The notes beneath the pieces are model-generated. The model searched no databases, was not told the origin of the DNA, and saw nothing but the letters and a program-made list of their open reading frames with translations. A stretch of DNA of 41,056 bases, taken from contig JAEIOG010000041.1 in the NCBI GenBank assembly GCA_016342495.1, positions 1-41,056 of the forward strand. Reading direction: 5' to 3'. Position numbers and translations under genes: made by a program. This DNA comes from Phycisphaerae bacterium (GTDB taxonomy: Bacteria > Planctomycetota > Phycisphaerae > Sedimentisphaerales > SM23-30). Every line of letters begins with the position of its first letter. Position 1 is the first letter of the stretch. Positions 2 through 18,200 of this stretch are shown here, one piece after another.

Positions 2-193
2 ATTATGCGAAAAAATAGCTTTAATAACCGCAGTAGCCGCGGAGCTCAAACCCAATCAATCCTGATGAGCATATTTTCCACACTCAAACAACGCAACCAA
101 AACCCAGTCAAAGCCGTAAAGCAAGCCCTTAAAATCTACACCAAAACCGGAAAACTACCAAAACTAGCAGACATATCTGCTTCACATGGCTAA
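2..193 (+). CDS. C-terminal fragment of a probable IS66-type transposase (cut by window start)
   Basis: The reading frame is open from the left edge of the window to the TAA at 191-193, so the first ATG (5-7) is probably internal and this is the tail of a longer protein. The residues RKNSF, then RGAQTQ, then a helical stretch and a KTGKLPKL-type ending resemble the last ~60 residues of many IS66-family transposases, as I remember them. The DDE catalytic core would lie upstream and cannot be seen. No inverted repeat or target duplication could be recognised downstream of the stop. The family assignment rests on pattern memory only. Alternatives are a degenerate transposase remnant or an unrelated basic protein. 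Confidence 0.45.
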   Translation: MMRKNSFNNRSSRGAQTQSILMSIFSTLKQRNQNPVKAVKQALKIYTKTGKLPKLADISASHG

Positions 194-2980: not shown

Positions 2981-3011
2981 TTTTTCTCTCGTTAATACCA
3001 AGTTTTATTTA

Positions 3012-3314
3012 TTAAATCACGCAGTTTTTGCTTATACAGTTTATCAACCCAGGAAGTTGGGGTGATATGATTTCGTAGTAGACTGCACGGCCTTTTCTTT
3101 GGCTGGCAAGTAGGCCCTGACCTTTAAGTAATCTAAGGTGTTCGCAGGTTTGGTTGGGGGTGCAATTGCATAGCTGGGCTATTTCGTGAACTGGAAATTC
3201 GCCTTGCATTAATATATTTACAATTTTCAGCCGAGCAGGGTGAGCCATCACTTTCAGGCATTCGGCCGCTTTTTCAAAGGTTTCGTCCGATAATAGTTTA
3301 AGTTGATTATTCAT
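3012..3314 (-). CDS. ArsR/SmtB-family winged-helix repressor, probably sulfur- or redox-sensing
   Basis: 100 residues. It has the ArsR-type winged helix: an AHPARLKIVNIL segment (about 24-35), a recognition region QLCNCTPNQTCEHLRLL (48-63), and a wing with RKGRAVYYEI (73-82). Start ATG at 3312-3314 with AGGAG 7 bases upstream. Six cysteines (19, 49, 51, 57, 93, 98) are many for such a small protein. Cys49 and Cys51 form a CxC at the turn before the recognition helix, not at the classical arsenic site. Because it directly precedes a persulfide/sulfurtransferase gene, the most likely signal is a sulfane sulfur or persulfide, as known for the BigR/SqrR branch of the family; metals or arsenite remain possible. 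It probably represses its own operon through the inverted repeat at 3349-3373. Confidence 0.85.
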   Translation of the reverse strand: MNNQLKLLSDETFEKAAECLKVMAHPARLKIVNILMQGEFPVHEIAQLCNCTPNQTCEHLRLLKGQGLLASQRKGRAVYYEIISPQLPGLINCISKNCVI

Positions 3315-3688
3315 AAGTAGCTCCTGTATTATTTCATATTATACTATCAATATATCGAAATGTTGCGATATTTCTATGTTTTTTTTGAATTATTTATGCT
3401 ATTTATATATAAGTTTTTATTTAACAACAGTTTATGTTGATAAAGAAGATTGAAAAAAAGTGGTTTTCACCTAAAAATGCGGTTATGTATTATTAAATTC
3501 GCAGGATTGGACATTGGCATTAGCGATAAATAGTTCTCATGTTACAATATTCCAATTTTTGTGTCATTATTACTATATGACCAAGCTATAAGACTGGTTA
3601 TAATGCAATGACTGTGTTTAATGAGCGTCGGTAAGTGGAGATGACTGCTGGCGGTATGAGAAATTATATGGTTTTATTGGAGTAAAAA
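3315..3688. other. Divergent intergenic region, 374 bases
   Basis: AT-rich spacer between the leftward sulfur operon and the rightward DUF1080 gene. It holds the ArsR promoter/operator on the left and a candidate rightward promoter: TATAAT at 3599-3604 with ATGACC (3577-3582) 16 bases upstream, which would give a leader of about 78 bases. A TTGGAG ribosome site precedes the ATG at 3689. No coding potential was seen in the middle part. Confidence 0.4.
3338..3373 (-). promoter_or_regulatory. Promoter and operator-like inverted repeat upstream of the ArsR-type gene
   Basis: On the minus strand a perfect TATAAT (3338-3343 on the plus strand) lies 23 bases before the start codon. An inverted repeat ATATCG-N8-CGATAT (3352-3371) covers the expected spacer and -35 region; no good -35 hexamer is visible. 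A repressor on this repeat would block RNA polymerase, which fits ArsR-type autoregulation. The repeat and the TATAAT are seen directly; the operator role is inferred. Confidence 0.5.
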
Positions 3689-4381
3689 ATGAAAAAGGTA
3701 TTATTAGTAGCGGTTTGTCTGGGTTTTTTGGTTTTGCAGGGTTGCGGTTCGAAGGTGTCGGTGCCGCCAATGTCGCATCCTGATACTAGCGGTTGGCAGA
3801 ATCTTTTTGCCGCGGATTTATCTGACGCGATTTATCCTGAAGGTATCTGGACAGTAAGTGATGGTGTGCTGACTGCCAGTGAAGACCAATGTATCTGGAG
3901 CAAAAAAGACTATAATAATTTTATTGTTGATCTGGAATTCAAGACTGCAGATGGCACCAATAGTGGTGTGATTGTTTATTGTACCGATACCAAAAACTGG
4001 ATTCCTAATTCTGTTGAAGTGCAGATCGCTGATGACTTTAGCGAAAAATGGGCCAAAGCTGACAAGACCTGGCAGTGTGGTGCGATATTTGGTCATCTTG
4101 GTGCCAAAAAATCGGCAGTTAAAAAACCTGGTCAATGGAATCGTTATACAGTAACCTGTAAAGATAAGATGATTTATGTTCTTTTAAATGGCGAAATGGT
4201 AACCGAGATGGATATGGCATTGTGGACCAGCGGCAAGAAGAATCCAGATGGGACCGATATACCTTCATGGTTGAGTAATGCTTTTGCGACATTGCCAACG
4301 CATGGTCATATTGGTTTTCAAGGCAAACATGCCGGGGCACCGATTTATTTTCGCAATATAAAGATTATGGAAATTGAATAG
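3689..4381 (+). CDS. DUF1080 (3-keto-disaccharide hydrolase domain) lipoprotein
   Basis: 230 residues. A lipoprotein signal peptide with lipobox LQGC puts the mature N-terminus at about Cys19. The rest is one DUF1080 domain, a concanavalin/LamG-like jelly roll, with the family hallmarks GWQNLF near the start, WSKKDYNNFIVDLEFK, NSGVIVYC, a PGQWNRYTV segment and a final HIGFQGKHAGAPIYFRNIKI. Family knowledge: DUF1080 proteins are numerous in Planctomycetes and several act on 3-keto-glycosides or bind carbohydrate. Here it would sit on a membrane facing the periplasm. It is a single gene with its own terminator (4404-4439) and is not in an operon with the sulfur genes. The exact substrate cannot be read from the sequence. 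Confidence 0.88.
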   Translation: MKKVLLVAVCLGFLVLQGCGSKVSVPPMSHPDTSGWQNLFAADLSDAIYPEGIWTVSDGVLTASEDQCIWSKKDYNNFIVDLEFKTADGTNSGVIVYCTDTKNWIPNSVEVQIADDFSEKWAKADKTWQCGAIFGHLGAKKSAVKKPGQWNRYTVTCKDKMIYVLLNGEMVTEMDMALWTSGKKNPDGTDIPSWLSNAFATLPTHGHIGFQGKHAGAPIYFRNIKIMEIE

Positions 4382-4403
4382 TAAATTGAATCGTTAGTTT
4401 TTG

Positions 4404-4439
4404 AAGGCTTGTGAGTTTTTTGCTTATGAGCCTTTTTTT
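4404..4439 (+). terminator. Strong rho-independent terminator after the DUF1080 gene
   Basis: A 12-bp stem (4404-4415 with 4423-4434, including three G:T pairs) with a 7-base loop runs into seven T residues (4433-4439). It lies 22 bases after the stop codon. Its distal end abuts the stop of the convergent leftward gene at 4438. The T-run is only on the plus-strand side. Confidence 0.85.
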
Positions 4440-5130
4440 ATATTTCGGTGTTAGTTTGATGTGTTTTTTTTAATTGGGTCAAACGGCGTTCGATTTCATC
4501 TTGGCGCTGCAGGTTAGCTAAGGTGTCGGTATCGATATCAAAGCCGATGGTTTGGAAGATTTCATCATTGACTTCGAGTTCGATTTCTTTTTCTTCGATT
4601 TTAGCTTCCATTCGTGAGATAGCCTCTAAGATGGAATCGCCTTGGGGCAATGTTTGCGTTTCAAGATTGTTTTGGATTTTTTGTTTTTGCTTAACGATAA
4701 GGTTGCGTTGCTGGAGCTCTTTGCATTTTTGTTTTAGGTTATTGAGATTGTCTTGCAATTGAATGCGCACCTGCATTGCCTGTTTGTAAGCATCTTCGGC
4801 ACGAGTAAGTGAATTTTCCTGAAGCTTTTGTTGTTCTTCGGTTTCCAGTTGGGCGGCTAATGCTTTACGGGCAAGATTTTCATCATTTGTTTTTAAGGCG
4901 GTTTCGGTTAGTTTCTGGAATCGAAGTAGCTTGCCATTGGTTTCATCGAGTTTGCGGGATGAGGCTTTGACAGCGGTTAAGGATTTGGCTTGGGCCTTGA
5001 TGGCAAGGGATAGCTTTTGGGCCAGTTCCTTTTGCAACTGAGGCAGAATATGTTCTGGCTGTTCGATTGAATCAAGGAAAGCTTCGATTCGGCCCATTGT
5101 AATCAATTGTAATTTTTTTATCAGTGACAT
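4438..5130 (-). CDS. PspA/IM30-family protein (paralogue A, last gene of the membrane-remodelling cluster)
   Basis: 230 residues, almost wholly alpha-helical and coiled-coil. The N-terminus MSLIKKLQLITMGRIEAFLDSIEQPEHIL matches the PspA/Vipp1 amphipathic helix followed by the start of the helical hairpin. Family knowledge: PspA and Vipp1 are bacterial ESCRT-III homologues that bind stressed inner membrane and form rods or rings. Overall length is usual for PspA. The C-terminal EIERRLTQLKK segment is shared in pattern with paralogue C (14132-14836) but not with paralogue B. It starts 11 bases after the stop of the large AAA+ gene, so it is probably translated from the same transcript. No transmembrane segment is present. 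Confidence 0.88.
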   Translation of the reverse strand: MSLIKKLQLITMGRIEAFLDSIEQPEHILPQLQKELAQKLSLAIKAQAKSLTAVKASSRKLDETNGKLLRFQKLTETALKTNDENLARKALAAQLETEEQQKLQENSLTRAEDAYKQAMQVRIQLQDNLNNLKQKCKELQQRNLIVKQKQKIQNNLETQTLPQGDSILEAISRMEAKIEEKEIELEVNDEIFQTIGFDIDTDTLANLQRQDEIERRLTQLKKTHQTNTEI

Positions 5131-5141
5131 TTATTTAACCA

Positions 5142-8100
5142 TTATTCGTTTTCAGATTGCTTAGGTTTTGATTCATCGCTTTTTTTGGGTTGTTCTTCGG
5201 TCAGGTATCGCTGGCGGAGGAATTCCATCAGGTTAGCATAGCCGTCGGACATTTTTTCAAATTTGCTTACCAGTTCGGAAACATATTTACGTTGGCCATC
5301 GCGATTGTGCGTTACCCGCATCAGCCAGGTTTCCATGGTATTATATTGTTCTTCAAGGACAGAAAGCAACATGTGAGCATCTTTTTCTGTATCAAAAGCC
5401 TTTTGCTGGGCGGCCTGGTTGGCGATATCTTTACGCTGATGAGAAAGTTCATCTATAATGACATCAAATTTGTCAGCAAACTGGTCAGTGACTTTGGTCA
5501 ATGTTTCAGTTTGAAGGTTTTGGTTTGTCTGGTCAGGCTTTTTGGTGATAGAATCGACGCCTTGGGCCAGAACGTCTTTGATGGAATCAAGGCCCGCTCC
5601 GAAAGCGTTAAGTTGACGAACAACCATGGCGACTTTATCCTGAGATTCGTCACCCAGCAATTGATTGCGGCCAAAGGTTCGTTTGATTTCGCTCCAGCGG
5701 GTATTTTGTTCTTCCGTCAGCGTTTGGGTTATTTCTGCGAATTTCAGCAGGTTAGCTTCAGTGCCAGATGTTAAGGTCTGGGCGTCCTGCTGATAATTGG
5801 AGTAAATCAATGTCCACAATTCATCATCATTCATAACCGGCAATACGCGCTGAGCTATACGGTTCATGTTTCGATAAGAGCCTTGTAGTAAGAATGGTGG
5901 TTCGGTGCGATAGGCATCGGCTTGGGCGGCTGAATCGATATATTGGCGATTGACATTGAGAATGACATCGCGAACCCGGAAAAGTTTTTTCATGATAGAA
6001 ACATATTCATTTAGTTCATCAGCAGTATAATTACCTTCAAAGTCTATACCTTCGCGTTGGTTGGTCTGAGCCAGTTTGATAACCGATGCGATATCCTTTT
6101 GGCTCCGATTGGCCAATTTGCTAAGGACAGGATTGGAGGTGATGCTGTTTTCGATATAGCTCATGGTGAAAGCATCGAAATTGTCGCCAACGATATCACC
6201 GATATTATAAGTGTCAGCGCGGTTGGTAAGCATATCCGGGATTCTGAATTTTTCGCCACTTTCGGTATAAGGGTTACCAGCCATCACTACGCAGACTCTT
6301 TTGCCGCGCAGGTCATAGGTTCGACTTTTTCCCTTGTAAACGCCTTCGATACGCCTTTGGCCATCGCAAAGAGAGATGAATTTTTGCAGAATTTCTGGGT
6401 TGCAATGCTGGATATCATCAAGATAGATCATGACATTGTCGCCCATTTCAAAAGCGAGGTTCAGTTTTTCGATTTCCTGGCGGGCAGCCATATTAGGAGC
6501 TTCGTTTGGATCAATGCTGGTTACCTTGTTGCCAATAGCAGGGCCATTGATTTTGACAAAGATTAGTCCCAGGCGATTGGCAATGTATTCCATGAGCGTG
6601 GTTTTGCCATAGCCCGGCGGGGAAATCAACAATAGCAACCCTTGCAGATCGGTGCGTTTATTGTCGCTGGCAGAGCCAATTTGTTTAGCGAGATTATCAC
6701 CAAGTAAGGGCAGGTAGACCTGATCGATAAGCTGATTACGAACGAAAGAAGTCAGGATATGCGGTTCAAATTCGGAAAGTTTCAGATTTTCTGAGAATTT
6801 ATCGGTCAGTTCTTTTTTGCGTTGTCTATACATATTGAACTTTGGCACGATGTGATTTTCATGGTGGTATAGTTTATCGTTATATTTGCAATAGTTCAGT
6901 TCATAGGTGCCATCGTTGATGAGGCTGTGGGCGCCGACCATGCCCTTGATTTTTCTGTTGATGTCCTGGGCAATTATATGACGATTTTTACGAGCAGGAT
7001 CAGTCATCAAAACGGCTGCTTCTTCGGCATATTCCAGTTTGCCATTATGTTGGCGAATATAGCTTCGCAGCCAATCGCGCAGAAGGGTGAAAGCTCCGAT
7101 CGGGTCAGTATGGAGATCTTTAATGGTAGCATCCAGTTTGGTTCGTTGAGCTTTGCTGAGCTGTTTTTCGAAGTTAGCCAGGATGTCAGCGGCCAATTTA
7201 CTCATGCAGAAGTTATCGGCTTTGACCAGCTCGTCAAAAAGATAGTTTGCCGCTGAATTCGTTATTTCAGAGTCGAATAGATTGGTGTTGGCTATGAAAT
7301 TCTGGATTTCATTTTGTAACAGGGCGACATATTTATCTTTGGTATCATCTATGCCAAAGGTTTGCTGCAGTTGGCCTATACTGTGGATTTTGGTGGTGAG
7401 CAGTTGCTTTTGGGCGGCATTGTCCCAAAGTTGCCAGAATAGCAGGGCCAGACTGCGAGCCTGAGTTGGAAAACGCAGAAGGCCTATTTCCGATTCAAGT
7501 TGTAATAGCGTTTGTAATATCAAACAGCCATCCTGATCATGCACGCCTTTGACATAGCCCTCGGCAAAACGTGGGCCCATAAATTCACGGGTGAATTTTG
7601 CGACTTCATCAAGCTCGGCCCGACAGAGTTTATCTTTGGTTTTAAGGTCATTTGCGTTAAGATGTTCGAGCATTTTGTAGGCAAGATATTCACCGCGATA
7701 AGTTTGGGGAGTTTCTGATACGCTATCGAGGTTCCAGATTTCTTTGGTATTTTGCAGTTGGATATCATCAACTTTTTCAAAGAAGCCCGTGCCAGTCAGA
7801 TGATAATACATCTGGTCATCACGATTGACCATGGTGATTTCGAGATTCTGGTTGTTGACCCGGAAGCGATGGCTGCCCAGTCTGATAATATTCTCGCCAT
7901 CTTCATAAAGTGCCTGACGGTCTTTGAGTTGGCGAATCGCTCCTTGCTGGATACTTTTTAGTTGGCTGTTAATATCGTCGGCTTTGACTGAATCATTTAG
8001 TTTTAGTAAATTCTCAACGGTTTCTTCGAGTTTTTGTACCATCATATCAGCGGCAAAGAAGCCATTGATTTCGTTGACATCGGTTAAGGTGTCGACACGT

Positions 8101-10451
8101 TTACGAATGCCATTAAGGATACGCTGGGCCGAGGTCATCAGGGCCGAGGTTATCTGGTTGCGTTTGGCAACGAGCTGAACTTTGCGGGATTCAAAAGTGT
8201 TATAAATTTCTTCACGTTTTTCGCTTAGTTCAAGAATGAATTCTTCAAAGTCAGTAAATTTGCTTTCGAGGGTTTCCAGTTGTACTGAGGCTTTGGTCAG
8301 GTATTCATCGCATTTATCAGGGGTGCCGCAAAGGTCGAGGAAATTGATGACTGATTGGTCTAGCAATTTGACCTGGGCAGAGAATTCGGTTTTGCCTTCG
8401 ATGGTGGCAAGTTCATTGAGCTTGTTTTTCAGGCTGGCTTTGACCTGGTTGACTATGGCAAAGACCAATGAAATGGTGTCGATGATAGCGGTGGTTTCGG
8501 TTGCGTCAGTGATTTTGAGATTGCTGACGATTTCGGTTAGCATTTCCAGTTCGGTCGCGATTTTGCTGACTTTTTCGTTATGTTCTTTGACTTCGGTAAC
8601 TTTTTTGAGGTTGGGTACAGTTTTGCCGAGGTTTTGGATGCGGGTTCGGTAGGGTGTTAGCGAATTTGGATTCAAGAGGAACTGTACGCACAGGTCGCTT
8701 AGAGTTTTAGTTTCGTTGGCAACATCGGTTTCGAGTTTTTCAATTAATTCAAGGTCAGCATATCGCAGGTCACGTAAGGAAATGATCTGACCACGCAAGC
8801 CTCGCAGTTGGCTAAGATGGCTAACAAATATATCGACATTGTCCATGGCATCATAATCGATGGATTTAAGATGTTCGGTAACGAGTTTGTGAACAGTATT
8901 GATTTCTTTGCGGGTGTTTTCTCGGGTACGGACAACTTTTTCATATTCATCGACAGCGGCAGCGGCGGTCTGGGCGATTTCAGTTAGTGGTGCAGCCAGA
9001 TTGAAGGTAGCGGCGGAATCAATCCAGAAAAATGAATCCCGGATATTCTGGGCTTCTTTGTTGATATCGAGATAGAGGTTAACATAGCCTTCTTTTTTGT
9101 TAATAAGGTTTAGCAGTGCTGAACATTCAGCCATACAGCGGACAATGTCTTTATTGCCGATTTTGAAGAGTTCGGAATCATCTTTAGTTTCAATATTATA
9201 ATCGAAAGCATAATAGGGCGTTTGCCAGACTTGTACGGCATGGTGTTTTTGCGGTTCCTGTTCAGCACGAAAATAAAGCATGGTTCCATCTTTGAAATAT
9301 GAATAGCCATTGCATATAAAAGGATTTTCTATTTGCTGACTTATGGTATTATAAGAAAGCAGGACATAGACGCCAGCTTCGCGGTTATAGAAAATATATA
9401 AATGATCTTCGCCATTGGGTGAACTGATGCGTTTTTCGAAAACCATATTGTCGGTATTGGTGGAAAATACTTTGTGTTCGCCGGTTGCCAGGTAATAGCC
9501 ATTGGAAAATATTAAACCATGATTTTCTGGCAGGAGAACGCAAGAATCTTTGATACTGTCAGCGCGGGTAATATTTTGAAGTTTAGAATTATATATCAGG
9601 TAACGGAAATCTTTTTCCTGATAGGGTTTGATTTTCATAATTACCATATGGTCGATTATGGCATAATAGATTTCAGCATCAATTAAGGTCTGGTCGGGAT
9701 TTTCGACAGGTTCGGAGTAGATGCCCTGGCCGGATTCGGTATTATCTTCGATTTTTACAGTTAAGTCACCGCCAACGGTCTCGACAAAAACAATATCTTC
9801 GATGGAAATATGGGGGTTCAGGCCATTGCGGTGCATATCCTGGGTGGTGCGAATCCATTGGAAACCATGCTGAGGCGGAAATAGATATTCATGGTCGCTG
9901 CGATTATCGCAATACTGTAATTGTTGGCCTTTGATGATCCATTTGAATGTTTTGACATCGTTTACGGATTTGCCAACCCGGAAAACCATATAAAGGTATG
10001 GGCCTATTACGGCGAACTTGGCAAAACGGGCGTTGCGATAATATTTGTACAGGTTAAAAAAGTCGGCTTCAAACTCTTTGTTTTCCAGCAGGTCTAAAGT
10101 TTCAGTAGTCAGGTTATTATCCTGCCAGCTGTAAATGGCAAAGACATCTGATAGTTGCATTTCCGATCGCAGGCCTACAAAAACATTATAGCCAAAGATA
10201 AATTTATTACCTATCGGCACCATGTCACGCGGTTCACAATTATTTTCGGTAGTGATGCGTTGGCTGTTAAGCAGTTTGGTCTCAATAGAACCAAATACAG
10301 ATTTTCTGGCAGCATTTAATTGCGAAAGCCGGTCTTGCAGAGTCTTTCCGTGGGTTCCGAGTCTGTTACGTAATATTTCATATGTGCCACCGGTGAGCTG
10401 ATCGGGTTTTTGATCTTGTTCCTGGGCTTTAGAGGATTCTTTGTCAACCAT
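5142..10451 (-). CDS. Giant AAA+ ATPase with DUF3686 ('DNA repair ATPase' type)
   Basis: 1769 residues. Roughly the first 500 are beta-rich, as in DUF3686 proteins; the middle (about 530-860) is strongly coiled-coil; a mixed region follows; then a single AAA+ module with Walker A SPPGYGKTT (Lys1283), Walker B MIYLDDIQ (Asp1345-Asp1346), a sensor-1-like AGNPY and arginines in MLTNRADTY; the last ~250 residues are again helical. The database name 'DNA repair ATPase' has little experimental support as far as I know, and no nuclease or DNA-binding motif is visible. Context (three PspA paralogues and a flotillin) points to membrane work instead. ATG 10451 has AAGGA 7 bases upstream and is preferred; the frame stays open back to an ATG at 10583, allowing a 44-residue extension with a poor ribosome site. 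Confidence 0.87.
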   Translation of the reverse strand: MVDKESSKAQEQDQKPDQLTGGTYEILRNRLGTHGKTLQDRLSQLNAARKSVFGSIETKLLNSQRITTENNCEPRDMVPIGNKFIFGYNVFVGLRSEMQLSDVFAIYSWQDNNLTTETLDLLENKEFEADFFNLYKYYRNARFAKFAVIGPYLYMVFRVGKSVNDVKTFKWIIKGQQLQYCDNRSDHEYLFPPQHGFQWIRTTQDMHRNGLNPHISIEDIVFVETVGGDLTVKIEDNTESGQGIYSEPVENPDQTLIDAEIYYAIIDHMVIMKIKPYQEKDFRYLIYNSKLQNITRADSIKDSCVLLPENHGLIFSNGYYLATGEHKVFSTNTDNMVFEKRISSPNGEDHLYIFYNREAGVYVLLSYNTISQQIENPFICNGYSYFKDGTMLYFRAEQEPQKHHAVQVWQTPYYAFDYNIETKDDSELFKIGNKDIVRCMAECSALLNLINKKEGYVNLYLDINKEAQNIRDSFFWIDSAATFNLAAPLTEIAQTAAAAVDEYEKVVRTRENTRKEINTVHKLVTEHLKSIDYDAMDNVDIFVSHLSQLRGLRGQIISLRDLRYADLELIEKLETDVANETKTLSDLCVQFLLNPNSLTPYRTRIQNLGKTVPNLKKVTEVKEHNEKVSKIATELEMLTEIVSNLKITDATETTAIIDTISLVFAIVNQVKASLKNKLNELATIEGKTEFSAQVKLLDQSVINFLDLCGTPDKCDEYLTKASVQLETLESKFTDFEEFILELSEKREEIYNTFESRKVQLVAKRNQITSALMTSAQRILNGIRKRVDTLTDVNEINGFFAADMMVQKLEETVENLLKLNDSVKADDINSQLKSIQQGAIRQLKDRQALYEDGENIIRLGSHRFRVNNQNLEITMVNRDDQMYYHLTGTGFFEKVDDIQLQNTKEIWNLDSVSETPQTYRGEYLAYKMLEHLNANDLKTKDKLCRAELDEVAKFTREFMGPRFAEGYVKGVHDQDGCLILQTLLQLESEIGLLRFPTQARSLALLFWQLWDNAAQKQLLTTKIHSIGQLQQTFGIDDTKDKYVALLQNEIQNFIANTNLFDSEITNSAANYLFDELVKADNFCMSKLAADILANFEKQLSKAQRTKLDATIKDLHTDPIGAFTLLRDWLRSYIRQHNGKLEYAEEAAVLMTDPARKNRHIIAQDINRKIKGMVGAHSLINDGTYELNYCKYNDKLYHHENHIVPKFNMYRQRKKELTDKFSENLKLSEFEPHILTSFVRNQLIDQVYLPLLGDNLAKQIGSASDNKRTDLQGLLLLISPPGYGKTTLMEYIANRLGLIFVKINGPAIGNKVTSIDPNEAPNMAARQEIEKLNLAFEMGDNVMIYLDDIQHCNPEILQKFISLCDGQRRIEGVYKGKSRTYDLRGKRVCVVMAGNPYTESGEKFRIPDMLTNRADTYNIGDIVGDNFDAFTMSYIENSITSNPVLSKLANRSQKDIASVIKLAQTNQREGIDFEGNYTADELNEYVSIMKKLFRVRDVILNVNRQYIDSAAQADAYRTEPPFLLQGSYRNMNRIAQRVLPVMNDDELWTLIYSNYQQDAQTLTSGTEANLLKFAEITQTLTEEQNTRWSEIKRTFGRNQLLGDESQDKVAMVVRQLNAFGAGLDSIKDVLAQGVDSITKKPDQTNQNLQTETLTKVTDQFADKFDVIIDELSHQRKDIANQAAQQKAFDTEKDAHMLLSVLEEQYNTMETWLMRVTHNRDGQRKYVSELVSKFEKMSDGYANLMEFLRQRYLTEEQPKKSDESKPKQSENE

Positions 10452-10582
10452 GATATAATCCTTGGCGTTATTTCGTGTCTTAATAAGCAGCGGTGGAGCT
10501 TGCGGTAATGCTATGGATAAATCTCCCGGATACCACATAGCCACCGTTTGGCTCCATGCTGCTATTTTTTGAAAATTATGCA

Positions 10583-10608
10583 TAACCCCCAAGGTTAAAT
10601 TGGGGGCT
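10583..10608 (-). terminator. Hairpin between flotillin and AAA+ genes (attenuator or processing site)
   Basis: On the minus strand an 11-bp stem (10598-10608 with 10583-10593 approximately; core CCCCCAA/TTGGGGG) with a short loop lies about 10 bases after the flotillin stop codon. There is no proper T-run, so full termination is unlikely. It may partly terminate or protect the upstream mRNA. It resembles the hairpin at 481-505, also just after a stop codon. Confidence 0.45.
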
Positions 10609-10618
10609 ATGTAATGTT

Positions 10619-12607
10619 TTACTTAAGGAAATTCTTTGCTGGCTTATCACCGATGCCCATGGCCTTGATGGTATTGATAAGGTTATTGAACATTGGTTTC
10701 TGATCTTTATCAGACATGCCAGCCATCTTAGTTACCAGGGCTGAAACGGTCAGGTTTTTGACATCTTCGCTACCAATACCGAACTGGTAGACGAATTCAC
10801 GTATTTTCTTTGTGGTTTCTTCTGCGTCACCAGTAAAGAAAGTATCTTTTACATCGGTTAGAACTTCGCTATTGGTGACCATGCGGTCAACGCTCTTACC
10901 GGCGGTAACAGATCCAACCAGTTTTTCAAAGAAGGTATTTTCCCCGCCAATAATGTCGATGCGAGCTGATTTAAGAGCTTCGCCAACGATGAGAGCCTGT
11001 TGTTCGGCGATGTCTTTCTGAATAGTGATTTCAGCAAGCTCAACTTGCAGATCTTTATTAAGACGTAATTTGAATTCTTCGTGGTCTTTGCCAACGGCAT
11101 CGAAGATTTTCATGGCTTCTGCTTTGTCACGGATACCATCGGCTTCGCTATGGTATTTCAGTTCCATGACCTTGGCTTCTGCGGTTCCTTGTTTTTCCAG
11201 AGCAGCAGCTTTGGCTTCGATAACTTCGGCTTCGGCGGTGCCACGGACGGCTTCTTCTTTAATAGAAGCTTCGGCCAGAGTCTTTTTAGCAACAGCGTTG
11301 CGGTCAGCGGATTTCTGGTTAGCATCAGCTTCAATAATTTGTTGTTCAGCATAAAGTTCAGCAGCACGCTTAGACGCTTCGGCTGCTTTGATGTCTTTGA
11401 CCAGGGCCGATTCAGCGGTTTCTTCGGCTTTGGTGATCTGCACCTTTTTGCTACGGTCAGCGGTTGCGAATTCTTCGGTGTCGAGGATACGCTGTTGTTC
11501 GGCAACGACGGTTTTTTCGATGGAAACCCGTTCGCGGATGGCGGCTTGCAGTTCTTTTTTCTGACCTTCGACGGCTTTGTCTTTTTCGACCTGGGCGATG
11601 GTGACCAGGCGTTCACGTTCGGTGGCTTCCAGGCCACGTTCACGTTCGACTCGTTCGGTTTCGACCGCTTCGGTTTTTTCACGATTTTTAGATGCGACGA
11701 TGATCTGGCGGTTTTTGTTTTGTTCGGCTACTGCGATTTCTTCATCGGCGGTGATGCGGGCTCTTTCGCCACGTTCCCGTTCGACCTGTTGTACGCGTTT
11801 GGTTTCGGCTTCTTCGTGAGCCTGAATAGACTGAACTTCACGCTGTTGTTTAGCTTCGGCTTCGGCGAGCTGTTTGTTGAGTTCCAGGATAGCTTCCTGA
11901 GCTTCGACATTTTGTTGGGTGATTGTTTTATCTTTTTCACGTTCACGGGCATTGGCTAACTCAAATTGTTCAGCGGTTAGAATCGTGATTTTCTTGATAC
12001 CTTCAGCATCGAGGATATTATCTGGTTTCAGCTTTGCTTTATCGGTTTGTTCGAGATAATCGATAGCGGCATCTTCCAGGACATAGCCACTGAGGTCTGT
12101 TCCTATGATATCCAGAATTTGTTCACGGAATGCTACACGATTGGTATATAGTTCGGAGAAATCAAATTGTTTACCGACGGTTTTCAAAGCTTCGCTGAAT
12201 TTGGCATCAAATAATTCGATTAATGCCTGGCGGTCCGAAGCTCTTTCGCAACCAAGTGATTGAGCAACTTTTTTGACATCATCAACAGTGTTATTAACCC
12301 TTACAAAAAATGCTACAACAATATCGGCACGCAGATTATCTTTACAGATAAGACCCTGCTCGCCGCGACGGTCGATTTCGATACGTTTTACCGAAATATC
12401 CATGTATTCAGCTTTGTGCATGATTGGGATTACAAATTTACCAGAGAAGCTGACCTGGGTATTTCCCCAACCATTTCTAATCAACGCTTCACCCTGAGAA
12501 ACTTTACGATAACACTTTGCTAATAATGTAAGGAAACCAATAATGGTAATAATAATAACCGCCGCGGCAATAATGGCGACGTTTTGTCCTAATCCTTCTG
12601 CTAACAT
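10619..12607 (-). CDS. Flotillin-family (YqiK-type) SPFH membrane protein
   Basis: 662 residues. One N-terminal membrane helix (about 8-29), then an SPFH/Band-7 domain (about 30-200), then a very long Glu/Lys/Ala-rich coiled coil (about 205-500) with repeated EAE/AEA motifs typical of flotillins, and a globular C-terminal part (about 520-662). Family knowledge: flotillins oligomerise at the inner membrane and scaffold membrane domains. In E. coli the close type YqiK is encoded with YqiJ, and here the YqiJ-like gene lies directly upstream, supporting the assignment. ATG at 12605-12607 with AGGAG 8 bases upstream. A 77-base gap with a weak hairpin (about 12645-12665) separates it from the YqiJ-like gene. 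Confidence 0.93.
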   Translation of the reverse strand: MLAEGLGQNVAIIAAAVIIITIIGFLTLLAKCYRKVSQGEALIRNGWGNTQVSFSGKFVIPIMHKAEYMDISVKRIEIDRRGEQGLICKDNLRADIVVAFFVRVNNTVDDVKKVAQSLGCERASDRQALIELFDAKFSEALKTVGKQFDFSELYTNRVAFREQILDIIGTDLSGYVLEDAAIDYLEQTDKAKLKPDNILDAEGIKKITILTAEQFELANAREREKDKTITQQNVEAQEAILELNKQLAEAEAKQQREVQSIQAHEEAETKRVQQVERERGERARITADEEIAVAEQNKNRQIIVASKNREKTEAVETERVERERGLEATERERLVTIAQVEKDKAVEGQKKELQAAIRERVSIEKTVVAEQQRILDTEEFATADRSKKVQITKAEETAESALVKDIKAAEASKRAAELYAEQQIIEADANQKSADRNAVAKKTLAEASIKEEAVRGTAEAEVIEAKAAALEKQGTAEAKVMELKYHSEADGIRDKAEAMKIFDAVGKDHEEFKLRLNKDLQVELAEITIQKDIAEQQALIVGEALKSARIDIIGGENTFFEKLVGSVTAGKSVDRMVTNSEVLTDVKDTFFTGDAEETTKKIREFVYQFGIGSEDVKNLTVSALVTKMAGMSDKDQKPMFNNLINTIKAMGIGDKPAKNFLK

Positions 12608-12684
12608 GCTTCTGCTCCTACTGTAAGAATTTATTAATTTGTCGACTAAAGGTTTTGAAAGCCTTTAATCATTTCCCTATTGTT

Positions 12685-13347
12685 TTATTCTGCCATTTTT
12701 CCAATTTCTACAGGCATAACATAATATATTGATTTATCTTTATCGTGGCCAACTACCACGGCTTCATCGCCGCGGTTCAGTGTGCAGCCATCTTCGGTTT
12801 TTGCGTTGATTAAAATTGGAGCCGCAGTAGTTTTGATTTCTGCCTGGCCCATTTTATCTGACACTTTGGTTGTGGTTATAATGCAAATTCTGCCAACGAT
12901 TTTTTTTGTGGAACTATCATCATTATTAAAAGACTCAAAAACTTTAGCAAAGGGCATAAGCACAACTTTTGTTATCATTAAACTGGCAACAAGGTTGCCT
13001 AATGCAATGCCAGTGCCAATAAACATGCCACGGTCTGGATTCAGATAATAGTTACTCATCAAGGATATAATCCATAGACTCAAAATTAATATGCTAAGCA
13101 ATACCATAATTGGCACTTTTCCCACATGGAAAAACCCCAGGAAGGTTCGCAACATATCCGGTGTGGCAATGTCACCATCAAGGTCCATATCTACGTCGGC
13201 ATCAATGTCGGCATCCAGATCGAAATTCAAGAATTCCGCGTCCATTGCACCAATTATCACTGACAGCCAATACAATACAATTAATGATAGCAATATTGTA
13301 AAACCCAGGTTTACCGGCAAGAACGCTTCATGTATTAGTTCGCGCAT
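12685..13347 (-). CDS. YqiJ/NfeD-like membrane protein with OB-fold domain, flotillin partner
   Basis: 220 residues. Hydrophobic segments at about 13-33, 76-97 and 106-132 are membrane helices; the last ~75 residues (from about KKIVGRICII) are beta-rich and fit the OB-fold of NfeD/YqiJ proteins. Between helices 1 and 2 is an aspartate-rich stretch (about 40-60, DLDADIDADVDMDLDGD). Family knowledge: NfeD-type proteins are co-encoded with flotillins and thought to act with them. The ATG at 13345-13347 is 11 bases after the stop of PspA paralogue B. The acidic loop is unusual and might bind cations or a basic partner (inference). Confidence 0.82.
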   Translation of the reverse strand: MRELIHEAFLPVNLGFTILLSLIVLYWLSVIIGAMDAEFLNFDLDADIDADVDMDLDGDIATPDMLRTFLGFFHVGKVPIMVLLSILILSLWIISLMSNYYLNPDRGMFIGTGIALGNLVASLMITKVVLMPFAKVFESFNNDDSSTKKIVGRICIITTTKVSDKMGQAEIKTTAAPILINAKTEDGCTLNRGDEAVVVGHDKDKSIYYVMPVEIGKMAE

Positions 13348-13358
13348 TTCAATAACCT

Positions 13359-14033
13359 TTATTTTTCATTGGAATTGTCCAGGTTTTCTTTAAGAGCCTG
13401 CATTTCTGCTTCTATTTGCAATTCGCGGCTGCGCTGTTGCAATTCTACATCGGTCAAAGTTTCCCCGCGCATTTGCTGGCGAATTTCAACTTCGGCTTCG
13501 CTGGTCATAACTTCATCTTCCAGGCGGTCAAGGGCCGGGTTGCTTTTAGTTATCGAAGCAAATCCAAGTTTTTTGTCGAAGCTGTTCTGGGCATCTGCTA
13601 AGTCTTTGCGAGCCCTTAAATTGCAAAGTTTGGTTTTTGCCTCACGCAGTTGGTCCTGGAGCTTGATAATATTGTCGCTGAGCATTGCATAAGATTTTTT
13701 ACCATCTTCAACGCCCGGGGTCAACTGCGAAATTCTTTCGGTAATCTTGACTTTTTCCGTGACTAACTGGCGGGCATGATTTTCATCATTAGCTTTAATC
13801 GCCGATTGTGCCTGTTGAGTTAATGAATCCCGTTTGTTTTTGAGGCTTTTAAGTTCATTTTCCAATCGGCGATAAGTCGCACCATACATAGCGGCACTTT
13901 CCCGTCCTTCATGAATGACTTCTTCCAGCTCCTTGATTTTCGATTCCAGTTCATTTTCAGCTGGTTCTACTTTGTCGAGCATCCAGTTGATATTTGACTT
14001 TATTATTCTGCTTATTCTTTCGAAGATAGCCAT
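13359..14033 (-). CDS. PspA/IM30-family protein (paralogue B, closest to canonical PspA)
   Basis: 224 residues. The N-terminus MAIFERISRIIKSNINWMLDKVE matches canonical PspA/Vipp1, with an amphipathic helix and then the S-N-x-N-x-x-L-D-K motif. The remainder is continuous coiled coil ending in a charged tail. The ATG at 14033 was chosen over one two codons upstream (14039) because AAGGAG then lies 8 rather than 2 bases away and the product aligns with the family start. It follows paralogue C after a 98-base gap that contains a perfect 10-bp hairpin. Role, from the family: an ESCRT-III-like membrane-binding polymer protecting the inner membrane. Its sequence differs clearly from paralogues A and C, so these are not recent duplicates. 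Confidence 0.9.
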   Translation of the reverse strand: MAIFERISRIIKSNINWMLDKVEPAENELESKIKELEEVIHEGRESAAMYGATYRRLENELKSLKNKRDSLTQQAQSAIKANDENHARQLVTEKVKITERISQLTPGVEDGKKSYAMLSDNIIKLQDQLREAKTKLCNLRARKDLADAQNSFDKKLGFASITKSNPALDRLEDEVMTSEAEVEIRQQMRGETLTDVELQQRSRELQIEAEMQALKENLDNSNEK

Positions 14034-14084
14034 CGCCATTACTCCTTAATTTAGTCATGTCGCTTCCGCTTCATGTTTTATTCA

Positions 14085-14120
14085 AGTCAGGCCTCCAGCG
14101 GTTAGGTCGAAGGCCTGACT
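14085..14120 (-). other. Intercistronic hairpin between PspA paralogues C and B
   Basis: A perfect 10-bp inverted repeat (14085-14094 with 14111-14120, 16-base loop) lies 12 bases beyond the stop codon of paralogue C. No T-run follows on the minus strand, so it is more likely an mRNA-stabilising or processing hairpin, or a weak terminator, than an efficient terminator. Confidence 0.6.
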
Positions 14121-14131
14121 GTTTCGGACAT

Positions 14132-14836
14132 TTAACAGAGAGACTCACCTGTTGCAGAGCACAGGGCTTCTTTGCGTATCTGTGCTAATCTACGTTGAAT
14201 CTCTGTTTCATGGTCCAGCTCACGCAATTGCCGGTCCAGTGACGCTGTTGATAAGTCGTCACCGACCAGGCATGCTTGAATTTCCAGCTGCGACTCTGCT
14301 TCTTCGATGTTGGATTCCAGACGGGCAACCGAATCTAATATGCTGTCTGTATTGCCAACGCCGCCAGTGACGGTTCGTTGAATTTTCTTTTGAGCTTTAA
14401 CGATTTTGGCCCGGGTAAGCAAATCCTGCTTTTTTGAGCGCAGCTCATCTAATTGACGGCCAATTCTTTTGCGGCTGACATGAGCATGATCTAATGCGTC
14501 AACGGCACGGTCGTAATTTTGCTGGGCCAGGGCGATTACTTTTTCCAGGTCGATCTGAGCTTCGACAGCCATCTGTGCGGTCTGGTCATCATTTTTCTGG
14601 ATGGCCAGCACTGCACCGCGGTTGTACTTGGTTAGTCTTTCCTGATGTCTTTGTAATTCGCGTTTAGCTTGTTTAAGATTGGCGCTGGCTTTTGCTTCGG
14701 CCTGAGCGGTTTCTTCCAGTTGCTTTTCCATTTCTTTTACAAGAATAGGGAAAACCTGTTCTGGATCTTCAACGCGGTCTAGAAATGCTTCGATTCTGCC
14801 AAAGGTGATTCTGTGTAGTCTTCTAAATAATCCCAT
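14132..14836 (-). CDS. PspA/IM30-family protein (paralogue C, first gene of the cluster)
   Basis: 234 residues. The N-terminus MGLFRRLHRITFGRIEAFLDRVEDPEQVF is a PspA-type amphipathic helix followed by the helical hairpin; coiled coil continues to about residue 215. It shares with paralogue A the GRIEAFLD(R/S)xE motif at the start and an EIxRRLxQ(I/L)xK motif near the end. The tail LCSATGESLC carries two cysteines, the last being the C-terminal residue; this is unusual for PspA and could form disulfides or be modified (inference). ATG 14834-14836 has AAGGAG 8 bases upstream. It is the first gene of the six-gene leftward cluster. Confidence 0.9.
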   Translation of the reverse strand: MGLFRRLHRITFGRIEAFLDRVEDPEQVFPILVKEMEKQLEETAQAEAKASANLKQAKRELQRHQERLTKYNRGAVLAIQKNDDQTAQMAVEAQIDLEKVIALAQQNYDRAVDALDHAHVSRKRIGRQLDELRSKKQDLLTRAKIVKAQKKIQRTVTGGVGNTDSILDSVARLESNIEEAESQLEIQACLVGDDLSTASLDRQLRELDHETEIQRRLAQIRKEALCSATGESLC

Positions 14837-15002
14837 GACAATACTCCTTATATTAGGCTTCTGGTTTTTTTACCAGAATAACCGACGACGACAGAGTCCC
14901 TTGCCTGTCTCATCGTCAAAATGTTTGCGTATATCCATCAAACGCTGATGGTGCAAATCATGTGGAATACTGAAAATAACGCTCTCGCGTCTTTACATAT
15001 AT

Positions 15003-15032
15003 ACAGTATTGCCTGTTTTTTGGAGTTGTCAA
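15003..15032 (-). promoter_or_regulatory. Candidate sigma-70-type promoter of the PspA-flotillin-AAA cluster
   Basis: On the minus strand a perfect TTGACA (15027-15032) is followed, after 18 bases, by TACTGT (15003-15008), a weak -10. The leader would be about 160 bases. No sigma-54 (GG-N10-GC type) site was found, so control by a PspF-like enhancer-binding protein is not supported. Confidence 0.45.
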
Positions 15033-15165
15033 GTGAAATTGGAAATATTATTTAAATGATTTGTGATTTGACTGTTGATGTGTGAATGAAGTTTATGCGT
15101 TAATATATTGATAATTAAAGCACTTATATCATTTAGTCTCTTCTGGTAAGCCGCGTAAAAAAGAT

Positions 15166-15205
15166 AAAAAAAATTGGCACTTGTATTGTAAAAAACACAA
15201 GTGCC
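15166..15205 (-). terminator. Rho-independent terminator of the CotH/lamin-tail gene
   Basis: A perfect 9-bp stem (15176-15184 with 15197-15205, 12-base loop) is followed on the minus strand by a run of eight T residues (15173-15166). It lies 54 bases after the stop codon at 15259. Confidence 0.85.
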
Positions 15206-15258
15206 GATTTCTATTTTTGTAACCTTTAAAACTGTAATATTTACAGCCTTAAGTATTT

Positions 15259-18200
15259 TTATTGGCCTGGGGTTGGATCCGCTGCCTGCCAGTTAACTGG
15301 ATCATTGCCATAATCGCTATTTACTTTGCGATGCAATGATTTGCCATCGCCATCGCCTTCGGTTGGCCATGGGTCAGAATCATCATAGACAACCCGATCA
15401 ATGCGAATCCAGTAACGATTATTTTGTGAATCAATATCACCTGGCATTGAAAGCTGGATTTTTTCACTGCCATTGCTGAGTCTGCCATCGCCCCATTCGA
15501 AAATTTGCGTACCGGCTGGCAGGTTAAAGACACTATTGAATGCTGTTAGTGACCTGGTCAGGATAATTTTTTCACCGGCAGCCATTACAACAGGAACATC
15601 TGTTGGGAAATTAAATTCTAAACTACCTTCGTCGATAAATTGCCAACCAAGATTGCTGTCGCTGTCGAATAGTGTTACTGGCAATGCGGATATATTAGTC
15701 AGTTCCACATATTCAGCTTCTTCATTGATAGTGGGGTTATAATTGATTTCGCTTATGACAACAGGCCCAACTAATGGGGTCGCATTGGCTGCTGTGGGTG
15801 TCGCAGAAGTCAGCATGACAAAATTAAATGTCCCTGTTGATTTCTCATAACGTCCCATTGAAATATCAGGCAAAGAAGCTCCAAAATCTTCGCTTGTTTG
15901 CCAACCAGCGATCTGACCATCAACTGTTGCGGTTAAATAAAGAGTTTCACCATTTTCGCTAAGGGCAAAGTTATCGCCAAAATGATCGGTTTGATTGAAA
16001 ACAATATATCCATCAGCGGCGATAATGGTATCAGCGGCGATTTGATATTTAGTCAGGTCGCTACCGCTGTCGCTTAGATACCACGATCCTATATTAATTG
16101 GTAAATCGGTAGTGTTGTATAATTCAATCCAGTCCGCAGTTTCAATATCAGAATGAGCCAGAATTTCATTTATTACAATCGCTCCGTTCTCAGGCAGCTG
16201 ATTTTGATCTTCGGCTCCCGGTGTACCATTAGCTAGTGTGCTTGCTCGCCATGCGGTTTTGCTATCCCAGTTTTCCAGGATGCTATCATTTTCATTGATA
16301 ATTGTCAGTGAGAAACCTATACCATCGGTAATTGGATACCAATTGTCAGAATAATTAAATTCAAGGATGGTGCTGTTGATGGCATCTTCTAGTTTGATAG
16401 TTTCACCTGAATTGGCCAGCGAACCGGTATATTGCCCTGCAATATTAAAACCAGCGTCATAACGCTGGACGAAGGCTTCCTGATTTTTAACCAGTAAAAT
16501 ATATTGTCCGGCATCAAGTGTAGTGCCCGCAGAAAATGCATAGTTGATACCCGCGGTAAATTTTACACCATCAAGTGTCAAAGGCTGTGAGCCAATATTT
16601 TTCAGCTCGATAAATTCATATTCTTCTTCGTTTAATGTCCCAGTAGCAGGATGATACATGAGTTCAGTGACACGTAAATATTTTTGCGGATCGCTTGGGT
16701 TGCCAGTGTATGTGAAACTGGATATGACCGCGGCATTCTGATCTCGCAATTTAATAGTTTCACCCCAACTGGAAAGATGTCCTTGATAGTTGCCAATTAT
16801 AAATAGCCCCTGGCCACTGGTAGGTGCGGTTGCTCTTGCGCGGAAGGCATTGATATTTGGTGAAACATACATGTCACCACCTGAGATGATAACTGTGCCC
16901 GGTTCAAAAGTAAATTTAACCCCGCCAGTTAATTGCCACCCAGAAAGGTCAACAGCGACATCGCTATTATTATGAATTCTGATATATTCTTCATCCTGAT
17001 TATTGGAGACAGGGCTGTAATCAACCTCAGTTATATCGACATCAACGGGTGTATCAGGGATAACGGCAACTGTTCCGGCCTGCAATTCTGCTAATAGTAG
17101 CATGTCAGAGCTTGCCAGGATACTATTCATCAACTGAATCGCCAATACATTCTCTCCGGCGACCAGCATGGTATCAGGAACTATCGTTTCTATATAGTTA
17201 GCTAAAACTGTACTGTCACCTGCTCCGCCATCGCTATAGCTGTTCCACTGAGGGGTTCCGTTGAAATAATAGCGATTGACTTCAACACCATTGATATAGG
17301 CGATATAGCCGTCGTCGCATTTGGTACGGAGCTTTAAAATATCAATTGCATCCGGGTCGCTTACATTAAAAGGTATACGTACATAGCAGCTGGGTTTCTT
17401 GTTATAGATCAGACTTTCTATATCAGTTGAAATATAATTTTGATATCCAGAGCTTCTTTCATAGCCCAGCCCCATATTGCCGGAAAGCCATGCATTGTCA
17501 TTGAAATTATTTTCAATCCAGTCGAGTCCTAAGCTGCTATCTGATGGCACATGATATTTAAGTGGATCGATGCCAACATCAGCTGAAATAAGAGTCTCAT
17601 TGAATTCTGTTATACTTGTTACCTGCCCCATACCATCAGGGATCAAAGGTTCTGTTCCGGCCATGCCATAGGTGTTGTATAATTCATTTCTGCGTGAGTC
17701 AAACCAGTTTTTAACACTGTTTACAGCCGAGCTTACGCCGAGGTGCTGATAGATTGGTGCTGCAATTTCGTCACAACGTGCTTCAAAATACTTTTGGCTC
17801 GATGGGGTATCTAATGGCTGTAAATACTGATCCATTACCGTTCTCAAATGTCTAAGGTACATTTCTCGAGTTTCGGGAAGATCAAACATGGCTTCATAAA
17901 AAACATTCCATTGTTTGGTTCCGACTTTTAGATGGTCTTCATCACAGAAGAAAGGATGAGGCCGATGAATACCCGCATCGCCAACTATGCCAAAGGTATA
18001 ATCTTTGTCCCATGGCAATACTTCCCACAAGCCGGTGCCATTGGTGTCTCGATAAAAATAAAAGTTTTTGCGAGTGTCATCACAATCATTAGTAATCATT
18101 CGAGCAGCCAGATAATTCATCATTTCCGGCAGATTGAAATTATCAAAGATGAAACGTCGTCGTACATTTTCATCGTCGCTGGTCAGGGCATCGACAACTT

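What the first reader, a model, noticed from the sequence alone, without database searches (positions are those of the whole stretch)
4438..14836. Six-gene cluster: three PspA paralogues, YqiJ/NfeD-like protein, flotillin and a giant AAA+ ATPase
PspA-family proteins are bacterial ESCRT-III homologues, and in eukaryotes ESCRT-III polymers are remodelled by the AAA+ ATPase Vps4. Here three PspA paralogues sit in one leftward cluster with a DUF3686/AAA+ protein, a flotillin scaffold and its membrane partner. A testable reading is a self-contained membrane-remodelling system in which the AAA+ protein disassembles or moves PspA polymers at flotillin domains, not a DNA-repair function. Parts of this link (PspA with flotillin/NfeD and AAA+ genes) are, as far as I recall, known from comparative genomics; the exact six-gene form and its role appear little described.
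Basis: partly seen in the sequence, partly recalled or inferred. Interest (0 to 1): 0.8.

Follow-up and report, generated by a model that had tools for sequence, protein, structure and literature searches.

The report
Three-PspA flotillin AAA+ operon with RNA leader
A six-gene bacterial operon joins three specialised relatives of the membrane-shaping ESCRT-III proteins to a flotillin, its membrane partner and a giant ATPase, and it starts with a conserved folded RNA that matches no known family, so the set looks like a dedicated, jointly controlled membrane-remodelling kit.

Summary
The six genes are real, lie on one strand and are closely spaced. The same order (PspA1-PspA2-YqiJ-flotillin-AAA+-PspA3) recurs in at least 12 planctomycete genomes, complete or cut by contig ends; one has PspA3 on another contig. 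PspA1, PspA2 and PspA3 are three old orthologous classes. They are the only PspA genes in the window's genome, and were apparently lost together at least twice while YqiJ-flotillin-AAA+ stayed.

The core is therefore YqiJ-flotillin-AAA+ (20/20 loci in the phylum, about 70/73 testable loci elsewhere). PspA was added at least twice. The AAA+ domain is intact and MoxR-like, with no MIT domain found, so 'works like Vps4' is possible but unproven. PspA-flotillin-YqiJ-propeller-AAA+ operons were described by Ravi et al. 2024; the three-PspA form without CesT/Tir is a new variant.

The unexpected find is upstream of PspA1: a structured RNA leader of about 135 nt (20 of 33 pairs with compensatory changes). 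It occurs once per genome, in all 11 PspA1-bearing genomes of the order and nowhere else there, with no Rfam match. Its model, searched blind, found a twelfth six-gene operon. Ligand and mechanism are unknown; Shine-Dalgarno sequestration was tested and not supported.

The parts
15003..15032 (-). sigma-70-like promoter of the operon (TTGACA, 18 nt, TACTGT; or 16 nt, AATACT)
   Evidence: Consensus match only; TTGAC-16..18-TAnnnT also lies just upstream of the leader in L034, L137, L139, L141, L143
14838..14972 (-). conserved structured RNA leader (stems P2, P3, P4; possible closing stem P1 that reaches the Shine-Dalgarno sequence)
   Evidence: Model R1 match 110.6 bits; covariation on 11-12 sequences; fold z -4.7; no Rfam match
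14132..14836 (-). PspA1 (PspA/IM30 family), 234 aa
   Evidence: PF04012 E 2.1e-23; orthologous class PspA1, support 97/93
13359..14039 (-). PspA2 (PspA/IM30 family), 226 aa
   Evidence: PF04012 E 2.7e-24; class PspA2 (100/99 with the single Kiritimatiellota PspA)
12685..13347 (-). YqiJ/YuaF-like (NfeD2-type) membrane protein, 220 aa
   Evidence: PF21001 E 4.8e-7; its family profile finds E. coli YqiJ
10619..12607 (-). flotillin (YqiK/SPFH2 type), 662 aa
   Evidence: Family profile finds E. coli YqiK at 239 bits; no Pfam Band_7 hit at E 0.1
10581..10611 (-). 12-bp hairpin in the flotillin-AAA+ gap; hairpins at this place recur in most six-gene loci with unrelated sequences
   Evidence: function not shown
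5142..10451 (-). giant DUF3686-DUF7902-AAA+ ATPase, about 1769 aa (ORF opens with TTG at 10592; ATG at 10451 preferred): beta-propeller-like N part, coiled coils, MoxR-like AAA+ domain, helical tail
   Evidence: Pfam; models pLDDT 87.6 and 82.4; fold matches
4438..5130 (-). PspA3 (PspA/IM30 family), 230 aa
   Evidence: PF04012 E 1.2e-14; class PspA3, support 100/99, sister of PspA1 (100/100)

Best explanation
One transcription unit encodes a membrane-microdomain machine. Shown or well supported: a YqiJ-flotillin-AAA+ core widespread in bacteria; a module of three orthologous PspA classes added to it in a Phycisphaerae lineage; and one structured RNA leader that marks only operons beginning with PspA1. 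Inferred: flotillin and YqiJ form a cytoplasm-facing scaffold at the membrane; the AAA+ protein docks there through its propeller and coiled-coil arm and uses a MoxR-like hexamer to remodel the scaffold and, where present, PspA polymers; PspA1, PspA2 and PspA3 co-polymerise as specialised subunits in the manner of ESCRT-III paralogues, PspA2 being the likely founder and PspA1/PspA3 a later pair. The leader replaces the PspF/PspC type of control and couples expression of the set to a metabolite, an ion or one of the operon's own proteins. Steps not shown: any physical contact, ATP-driven polymer turnover, heteropolymer formation, and what the leader senses.
For: Same gene order in at least 12 genomes of several families and two orders, short gaps. 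Three monophyletic PspA classes whose trees follow the host families; identity within classes 45-63%, between the window's paralogues 21-35%. The only PspA genes in the genome. Six-gene state ancestral in the order, with at least two joint losses of all PspA and the core kept. A non-sister PspA clade sits before YqiJ in 20 of 26 testable Bacteroidota loci, an independent recruitment. Walker A, Walker B DD, sensor-1 N, a candidate arginine finger and a candidate sensor-2 R invariant in 45 AAA+ proteins from many phyla. Leader covariation, one copy per genome, strict link to PspA1, and blind detection of a further six-gene operon. PspC absent from the genome. Precedent: an SPFH protein (YdjI) is needed to bring PspA to the membrane in B. 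subtilis (PMC8581546).
Against: No direct link between AAA+ and PspA; the AAA+ protein persists in genomes without PspA. No MIT domain found. Co-polymerisation is inferred from conservation only. Distance correlations between the genes are moderate (0.38-0.84) and partly reflect shared ancestry. PspA3 is unlinked in G416. Predicted occlusion of the Shine-Dalgarno sequence is no better than in shuffled leaders (0.45 against 0.42 unpaired).
Confidence: 0.5

Rival explanations
1. The AAA+ protein works only on the flotillin-YqiJ complex. The PspA proteins are a separate envelope-stress layer that happens to be co-regulated.
For: YqiJ-flotillin-AAA+ is conserved 20/20 in the phylum and about 70/73 elsewhere, mostly without PspA; 7 of 16 DUF3686 genomes of the order have no PspA; the AAA+ tail is not specific to PspA-bearing genomes.
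Against: Two unrelated PspA clades were recruited next to this core; PspA3 sits directly behind the AAA+ gene, 11-48 nt away.
Confidence: 0.35
2. A Vps4-like system in the strict sense: AAA+ engages C-terminal helices of PspA1 and PspA3 and disassembles the filaments.
For: PspA1 (11/11) and PspA3 (9/9) carry MIM1-like C-terminal helices of the type RLxxL[KR], with Arg where nearly all other PspA proteins surveyed have E, A, D, Q or L; the ATPase motifs are intact.
Against: Partial MIM1 match only (I or V instead of L, acidic residue not fixed); the two clades share ancestry, so this is one event; no MIT domain by Pfam; closest AAA+ fold is MoxR.
Confidence: 0.15
3. DNA-repair ATPase, as the Pfam label of DUF3686 says.
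For: Label; weak Walker-A similarity to RuvB.
Against: Context is membrane proteins in every phylum sampled; the AAA+ fold is nearer to chaperone-type MoxR proteins; no DNA-binding domain seen.
Confidence: 0.03
4. Anti-phage defence module that monitors or seals the membrane.
For: Patchy distribution and block loss of the PspA genes; giant AAA+ protein with a repeat arm.
Against: PADLOC hits are only weak coiled-coil or Walker-A matches; vertical co-inheritance across families; no mobile or defence genes were identified next to the cluster.
Confidence: 0.06

Closest known systems
CesT/Tir-PspA + band-7/flotillin + beta-propeller AAA+ + YqiJ operons (Ravi et al. 2024, mSystems, PMC11237479)
   Same: PspA, flotillin with YqiJ/YuaF partner, and the same propeller-coiled-coil AAA+ protein in one operon; the shortened YqiJ-flotillin-AAA+ form is also described there
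   Different: Here three orthologous PspA classes instead of one, no CesT/Tir gene, PspA3 behind the AAA+ gene, a different PspA clade, and an RNA leader; the passages read do not describe this form (the supplement could not be read)
YuaF-YuaG / YqiJ-YqiK (NfeD2-SPFH2) operons (PMC2636767)
   Same: Flotillin with its NfeD-type partner side by side
   Different: No AAA+ and no PspA genes
B. subtilis PspA with SPFH protein YdjI and membrane proteins YdjG/H (PMC8581546)
   Same: SPFH protein linked to PspA at the membrane
   Different: Different SPFH class, one PspA, no AAA+ protein
ESCRT-III/Vps4 of archaea and eukaryotes
   Same: Several paralogous ESCRT-III-superfamily subunits encoded with an AAA+ ATPase
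   Different: AAA+ is MoxR-like, giant, with a propeller; no MIT domain found; substrate not shown
MoxR AAA+ proteins CbbQ and NorQ
   Same: Best fold match of the AAA+ domain (Z 17.3-15.3 over about 240-250 residues)
   Different: CbbQ/NorQ are small and NorQ works with a VWA-domain partner; here the domain is fused to a propeller and coiled coils, with no VWA protein among the six
Riboswitch-like and autoregulatory mRNA leaders
   Same: Compact multi-stem RNA with conserved loops in front of the first gene
   Different: No Rfam family matches; one copy per genome on one operon; ligand unknown

Membership tests
CesT/Tir-PspA flotillin-AAA+ operon (Ravi et al. 2024) | PspA, flotillin, YqiJ/YuaF and propeller-AAA+ genes together | tested here: met
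   propeller-like fold Z about 10
CesT/Tir-PspA flotillin-AAA+ operon (Ravi et al. 2024) | CesT/Tir chaperone gene beside pspA | tested here: not met
   Profile of the 20 Bacteroidota genes before pspA finds none in the six-gene loci; no suitable ORF at 14837-15258
PspA/ESCRT-III superfamily | PspA_IM30 domain over the full length with an N-terminal amphipathic helix | tested here: met
   PF04012 over nearly all residues; PDB PspA/Vipp1 matched by PspA3; helix alpha0 moment 0.32-0.51
Vps4 | MIT domain and Vps4-type AAA+ domain | tested here: inconclusive
   No MIT in Pfam; nearest AAA+ fold MoxR, Vps4 only a lower Foldseek match; remote similarity not excluded
MoxR AAA+ | Fold and ATPase motifs of the MoxR type | tested here: met
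   CbbQ2 Z 17.3, NorQ Z 16.5; motifs invariant in 45 sequences
MoxR AAA+ | VWA-domain partner gene | tested here: not met
   No VWA hit in the six cluster proteins
Classical Psp response (PspF-PspABC) | PspC in the genome | tested here: not met
   No PspC in the assembly, 95% complete
Classical Psp response (PspF-PspABC) | PspF and sigma-54 promoter | tested here: inconclusive
   No strict -24/-12 match and a sigma-70-like promoter instead; PspF itself not searched
Cis-regulatory structured RNA | Compensatory changes across homologues in a fixed place before one gene | tested here: met
   20-21 of 33 pairs change on both sides, no shuffle as high; 12/12 before PspA1
Riboswitch | Binds a small ligand and switches expression | not testable with these tools
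   Needs in-line probing and reporter assays
DNA-repair ATPase (Pfam label of DUF3686) | DNA binding or repair activity | not testable with these tools
   Only Walker-A similarity to RuvB

The most novel reading that the evidence does not exclude
A bacterial counterpart of multi-subunit ESCRT-III: three dedicated PspA subunits form a composite polymer at flotillin domains, turned over by a MoxR-type giant AAA+ ATPase, with the whole set governed by a new class of regulatory RNA that senses membrane or envelope state.
Probability: 0.25. Interest if true: 0.9.

Novelty: new variant of a known kind. Interest (0 to 1): 0.62.

Why it matters
Bacterial PspA is studied mostly as a homopolymer, and how PspA works without an associated AAA ATPase is stated as unknown in PMC11237479. 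This operon gives a bounded, conserved parts list to test whether bacteria also use composite ESCRT-III-type polymers with a dedicated ATPase. Natural losses of the PspA module from the same core offer ready-made controls. The leader is a new structured RNA class whose ligand, once found, would say what the machine responds to.

Tried and rejected
DNA-repair reading: no support beyond the family label. Defence-system reading: PADLOC gave only weak coiled-coil or Walker-A matches. Rfam identity of the leader: none at gathering level or with permissive thresholds on three homologues. Wider regulon of the leader: weak matches under 27 bits in other genomes; the best (L188) lies antisense to a SecY-like gene and was judged chance. 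Translational switch by Shine-Dalgarno sequestration: stem P1 shows no change on both sides and occlusion equals shuffled controls, so not claimed. PspA-specific AAA+ tail: the long tail also occurs in relatives without PspA. Solved relatives of the flotillin by sequence: none. Paper searches for DUF3686 and for leader RNAs of psp or flotillin genes gave nothing relevant. One Pfam call failed on wrong coordinates.
Full report
Observation. The six leftward genes are present as described. Pfam finds three PspA/IM30 proteins, a YqiJ-type protein and a DUF3686-DUF7902-AAA+ protein. The 662-aa protein lacks a meaningful Pfam hit but belongs with E. coli YqiK by family profile (239 bits). The AAA+ gene most likely starts at ATG 10451, where its relatives start. 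Gaps inside the set are short (11-167 nt in the window; comparable in relatives), and a terminator-like hairpin and a sigma-70-like promoter lie before it.

What is constant and what is added. In 20 DUF3686 loci sampled across the phylum, YqiJ and flotillin genes sit in order before the AAA+ gene in all 20, while PspA genes flank the cluster in only one of them, L034; L039 has one distant PspA-like gene about 3.4 kb upstream. Among 80 named loci from ten phyla, flotillin precedes AAA+ in 70; seven of the other ten are cut by contig ends, and one (L104) has flotillin and YqiJ divergent. PspA lies before YqiJ in 20 of 26 testable Bacteroidota loci and in one Kiritimatiellota locus, but in none of the testable Verrucomicrobiota, Bacillota or other planctomycete loci.

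The three-PspA form. The window's genome has exactly three PspA genes, all here, and one DUF3686 gene. In the order (161 genomes) 16 have DUF3686; nine of these also have the PspA set and seven have no PspA anywhere. The order PspA1-PspA2-YqiJ-flotillin-AAA+-PspA3 is complete in the window, L034, L134, L135 and L140; it is split or truncated by contig ends in L137, L138/L139, L141/L142, L145 and L147; in G416 PspA3 lies on another contig (L143, L144). Named relatives that carry the downstream PspA3 include an Anaerohalosphaeraceae bacterium (L054), which places the lineage in the order Sedimentisphaerales, class Phycisphaerae.

Ancestry. A tree of 80 PspA proteins places PspA1 (97/93) and PspA3 (100/99) each as one clade and the two as sisters (100/100). 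PspA2 groups with the single PspA of a Kiritimatiellota cluster (100/99; PspA2 alone 90/46). The Bacteroidota cluster PspA is a different clade (98/99). PspA therefore joined the YqiJ-flotillin-AAA+ core at least twice. On the AAA+ tree the six-gene state is basal in the order and triad-only genomes fall in two places inside it, which reads most simply as one gain and two losses of all three PspA genes together. The seven triad-only genomes (G345, G346, G366, G368, G369, G370, G374) have no PspA match at all.

The AAA+ protein. Two AlphaFold models from 45-member alignments have mean pLDDT 87.6 (N part) and 82.4 (C part). The N part resembles beta-propellers (WD40 domains, Z about 10, aligned about 200 residues) followed by long helices. 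The AAA+ domain is nearest to MoxR proteins (CbbQ2 Z 17.3, rmsd 3.6 over 250 residues; NorQ 16.5), above dynein, ClpA/ClpB and p97-type domains. Walker A (PPGYGKTT), the Walker B DD, the sensor-1 N, an R in NRAD (candidate arginine finger) and an R in GSYR (candidate sensor 2) are invariant; the names of the last two are assigned by me from position. It is thus an apparently intact ATPase of a chaperone-like kind; the DNA-repair label rests on Walker-A similarity only.

The leader RNA. Aligning the regions before PspA1 showed a conserved pattern: stem P3 (GAYGAUCAG ... GUCGUC), stem P4 (GGUNAUUCCGG ... CCGGAAGCC, with a two-base bulge) and a variable stem P2. On ten sequences 84% of pair cells are standard pairs against 76% in shuffles and 33-52% when the partners are slid; 20 of 39 pairs change on both sides. 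With eleven and twelve sequences fitted to the model: 88.7% and 88.4%, and 20 and 21 of 33 pairs. The window's leader folds better than all 200 shuffles (z -4.7). No Rfam family matches.

Specificity of the leader. A covariance model finds strong matches in exactly the 11 genomes of the order that carry PspA1, one each, directly before it (66.5-120.7 bits), and none in triad-only loci. In 347 genomes of the class it finds one more strong match, in G609, another family outside the order (80.6 bits). That locus, not used to build the model, holds the full six-gene operon in the same order, and its P3 carries a compensatory A-U to G-C change at a pair invariant in the others. G609 is listed with 9% contamination, so its taxonomic place is uncertain; its value as a held-out test is not. 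In 392 genomes across the phylum only the window and G132 match.

How it most likely works. Flotillin and YqiJ would form the membrane scaffold, the AAA+ protein its remodeller, and PspA1-3 a set of specialised ESCRT-III-superfamily subunits acting at it. Conservation of three classes over several families, joint loss, and independent recruitment of PspA elsewhere support a functional bond; physical contacts and ATP-driven turnover are inference. PspA1 (11/11) and PspA3 (9/9) have an Arg in the C-terminal helix (mostly RL-x-x-L/I/M-[KR]) where PspA2 and almost all other PspA proteins surveyed do not (one exception, L169). This resembles the MIM1 motif that Vps4 reads (own knowledge) but is only a partial match, and no MIT domain was found. 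The leader may bind a metabolite or an operon protein; one copy per genome on one operon fits autoregulation at least as well as a metabolite switch. Sequestration of the Shine-Dalgarno sequence was tested and not supported.

What is known. Ravi et al. 2024 describe CesT/Tir-PspA operons with flotillin, a propeller-coiled-coil AAA+ protein and YqiJ, and the shortened triad, and propose roles in membrane complex assembly. An SPFH protein links PspA to the membrane in B. subtilis, and YqiJ-YqiK pairing is long known. New here, as far as the searched library shows: the conserved three-PspA form without CesT/Tir, its joint losses, the MoxR placement, and the RNA leader. DUF3686 is not mentioned in any paper of the library; supplements could not be read.

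Verdict. Observation confirmed, interpretation partly supported; a new variant of a known operon kind, raised in interest by the leader RNA.

Noticed in passing
window 10581-10611 (-), and flotillin-AAA+ gaps of L134, L137, L140, L135, L054, L151: Strong hairpins of unrelated sequence sit in the gap between the flotillin and AAA+ genes in most six-gene loci; triad-only loci L152, L153 and L055 have a short gap and no such hairpin. They might set the dose of the AAA+ protein.
   Followed up: partly
L137 (7703-8239), L062, L111, L104: A second, short flotillin-like gene or fragment lies beside the full flotillin gene.
   Followed up: no
L143 / L144 (genome G416): PspA3 is on a different contig from the rest of the cluster, which keeps PspA1 and PspA2; the unlinked gene is still intact.
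   Followed up: partly
window 15259-19866 (-): 1535-aa protein with five Lamin Tail Domains, a CotH kinase domain and a weak dockerin match, next to the operon; flanking genes of the relatives were not compared systematically.
   Followed up: no
window 518-3314 (-): Fused pyridine nucleotide-disulphide reductase, rhodanese, TusA and DsrE-like protein behind an ArsR-type regulator, probably sulfur handling.
   Followed up: no
window 3689-4381 (+): 3-keto-disaccharide hydrolase-type gene, apparently a lipoprotein, convergent with the operon; a stem-loop at 4403-4435 separates the two.
   Followed up: no
L167 (genome G051), 4698-8407: Two tandem PspA genes and a third weaker coiled-coil match in another planctomycete without a DUF3686 hit; a different multi-PspA arrangement.
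   Followed up: no
L149 (genome G382), 3059-3481: A CesT/Tir-like gene stands directly before a canonical PspA gene in a genome of the same order that lacks the DUF3686 cluster.
   Followed up: no
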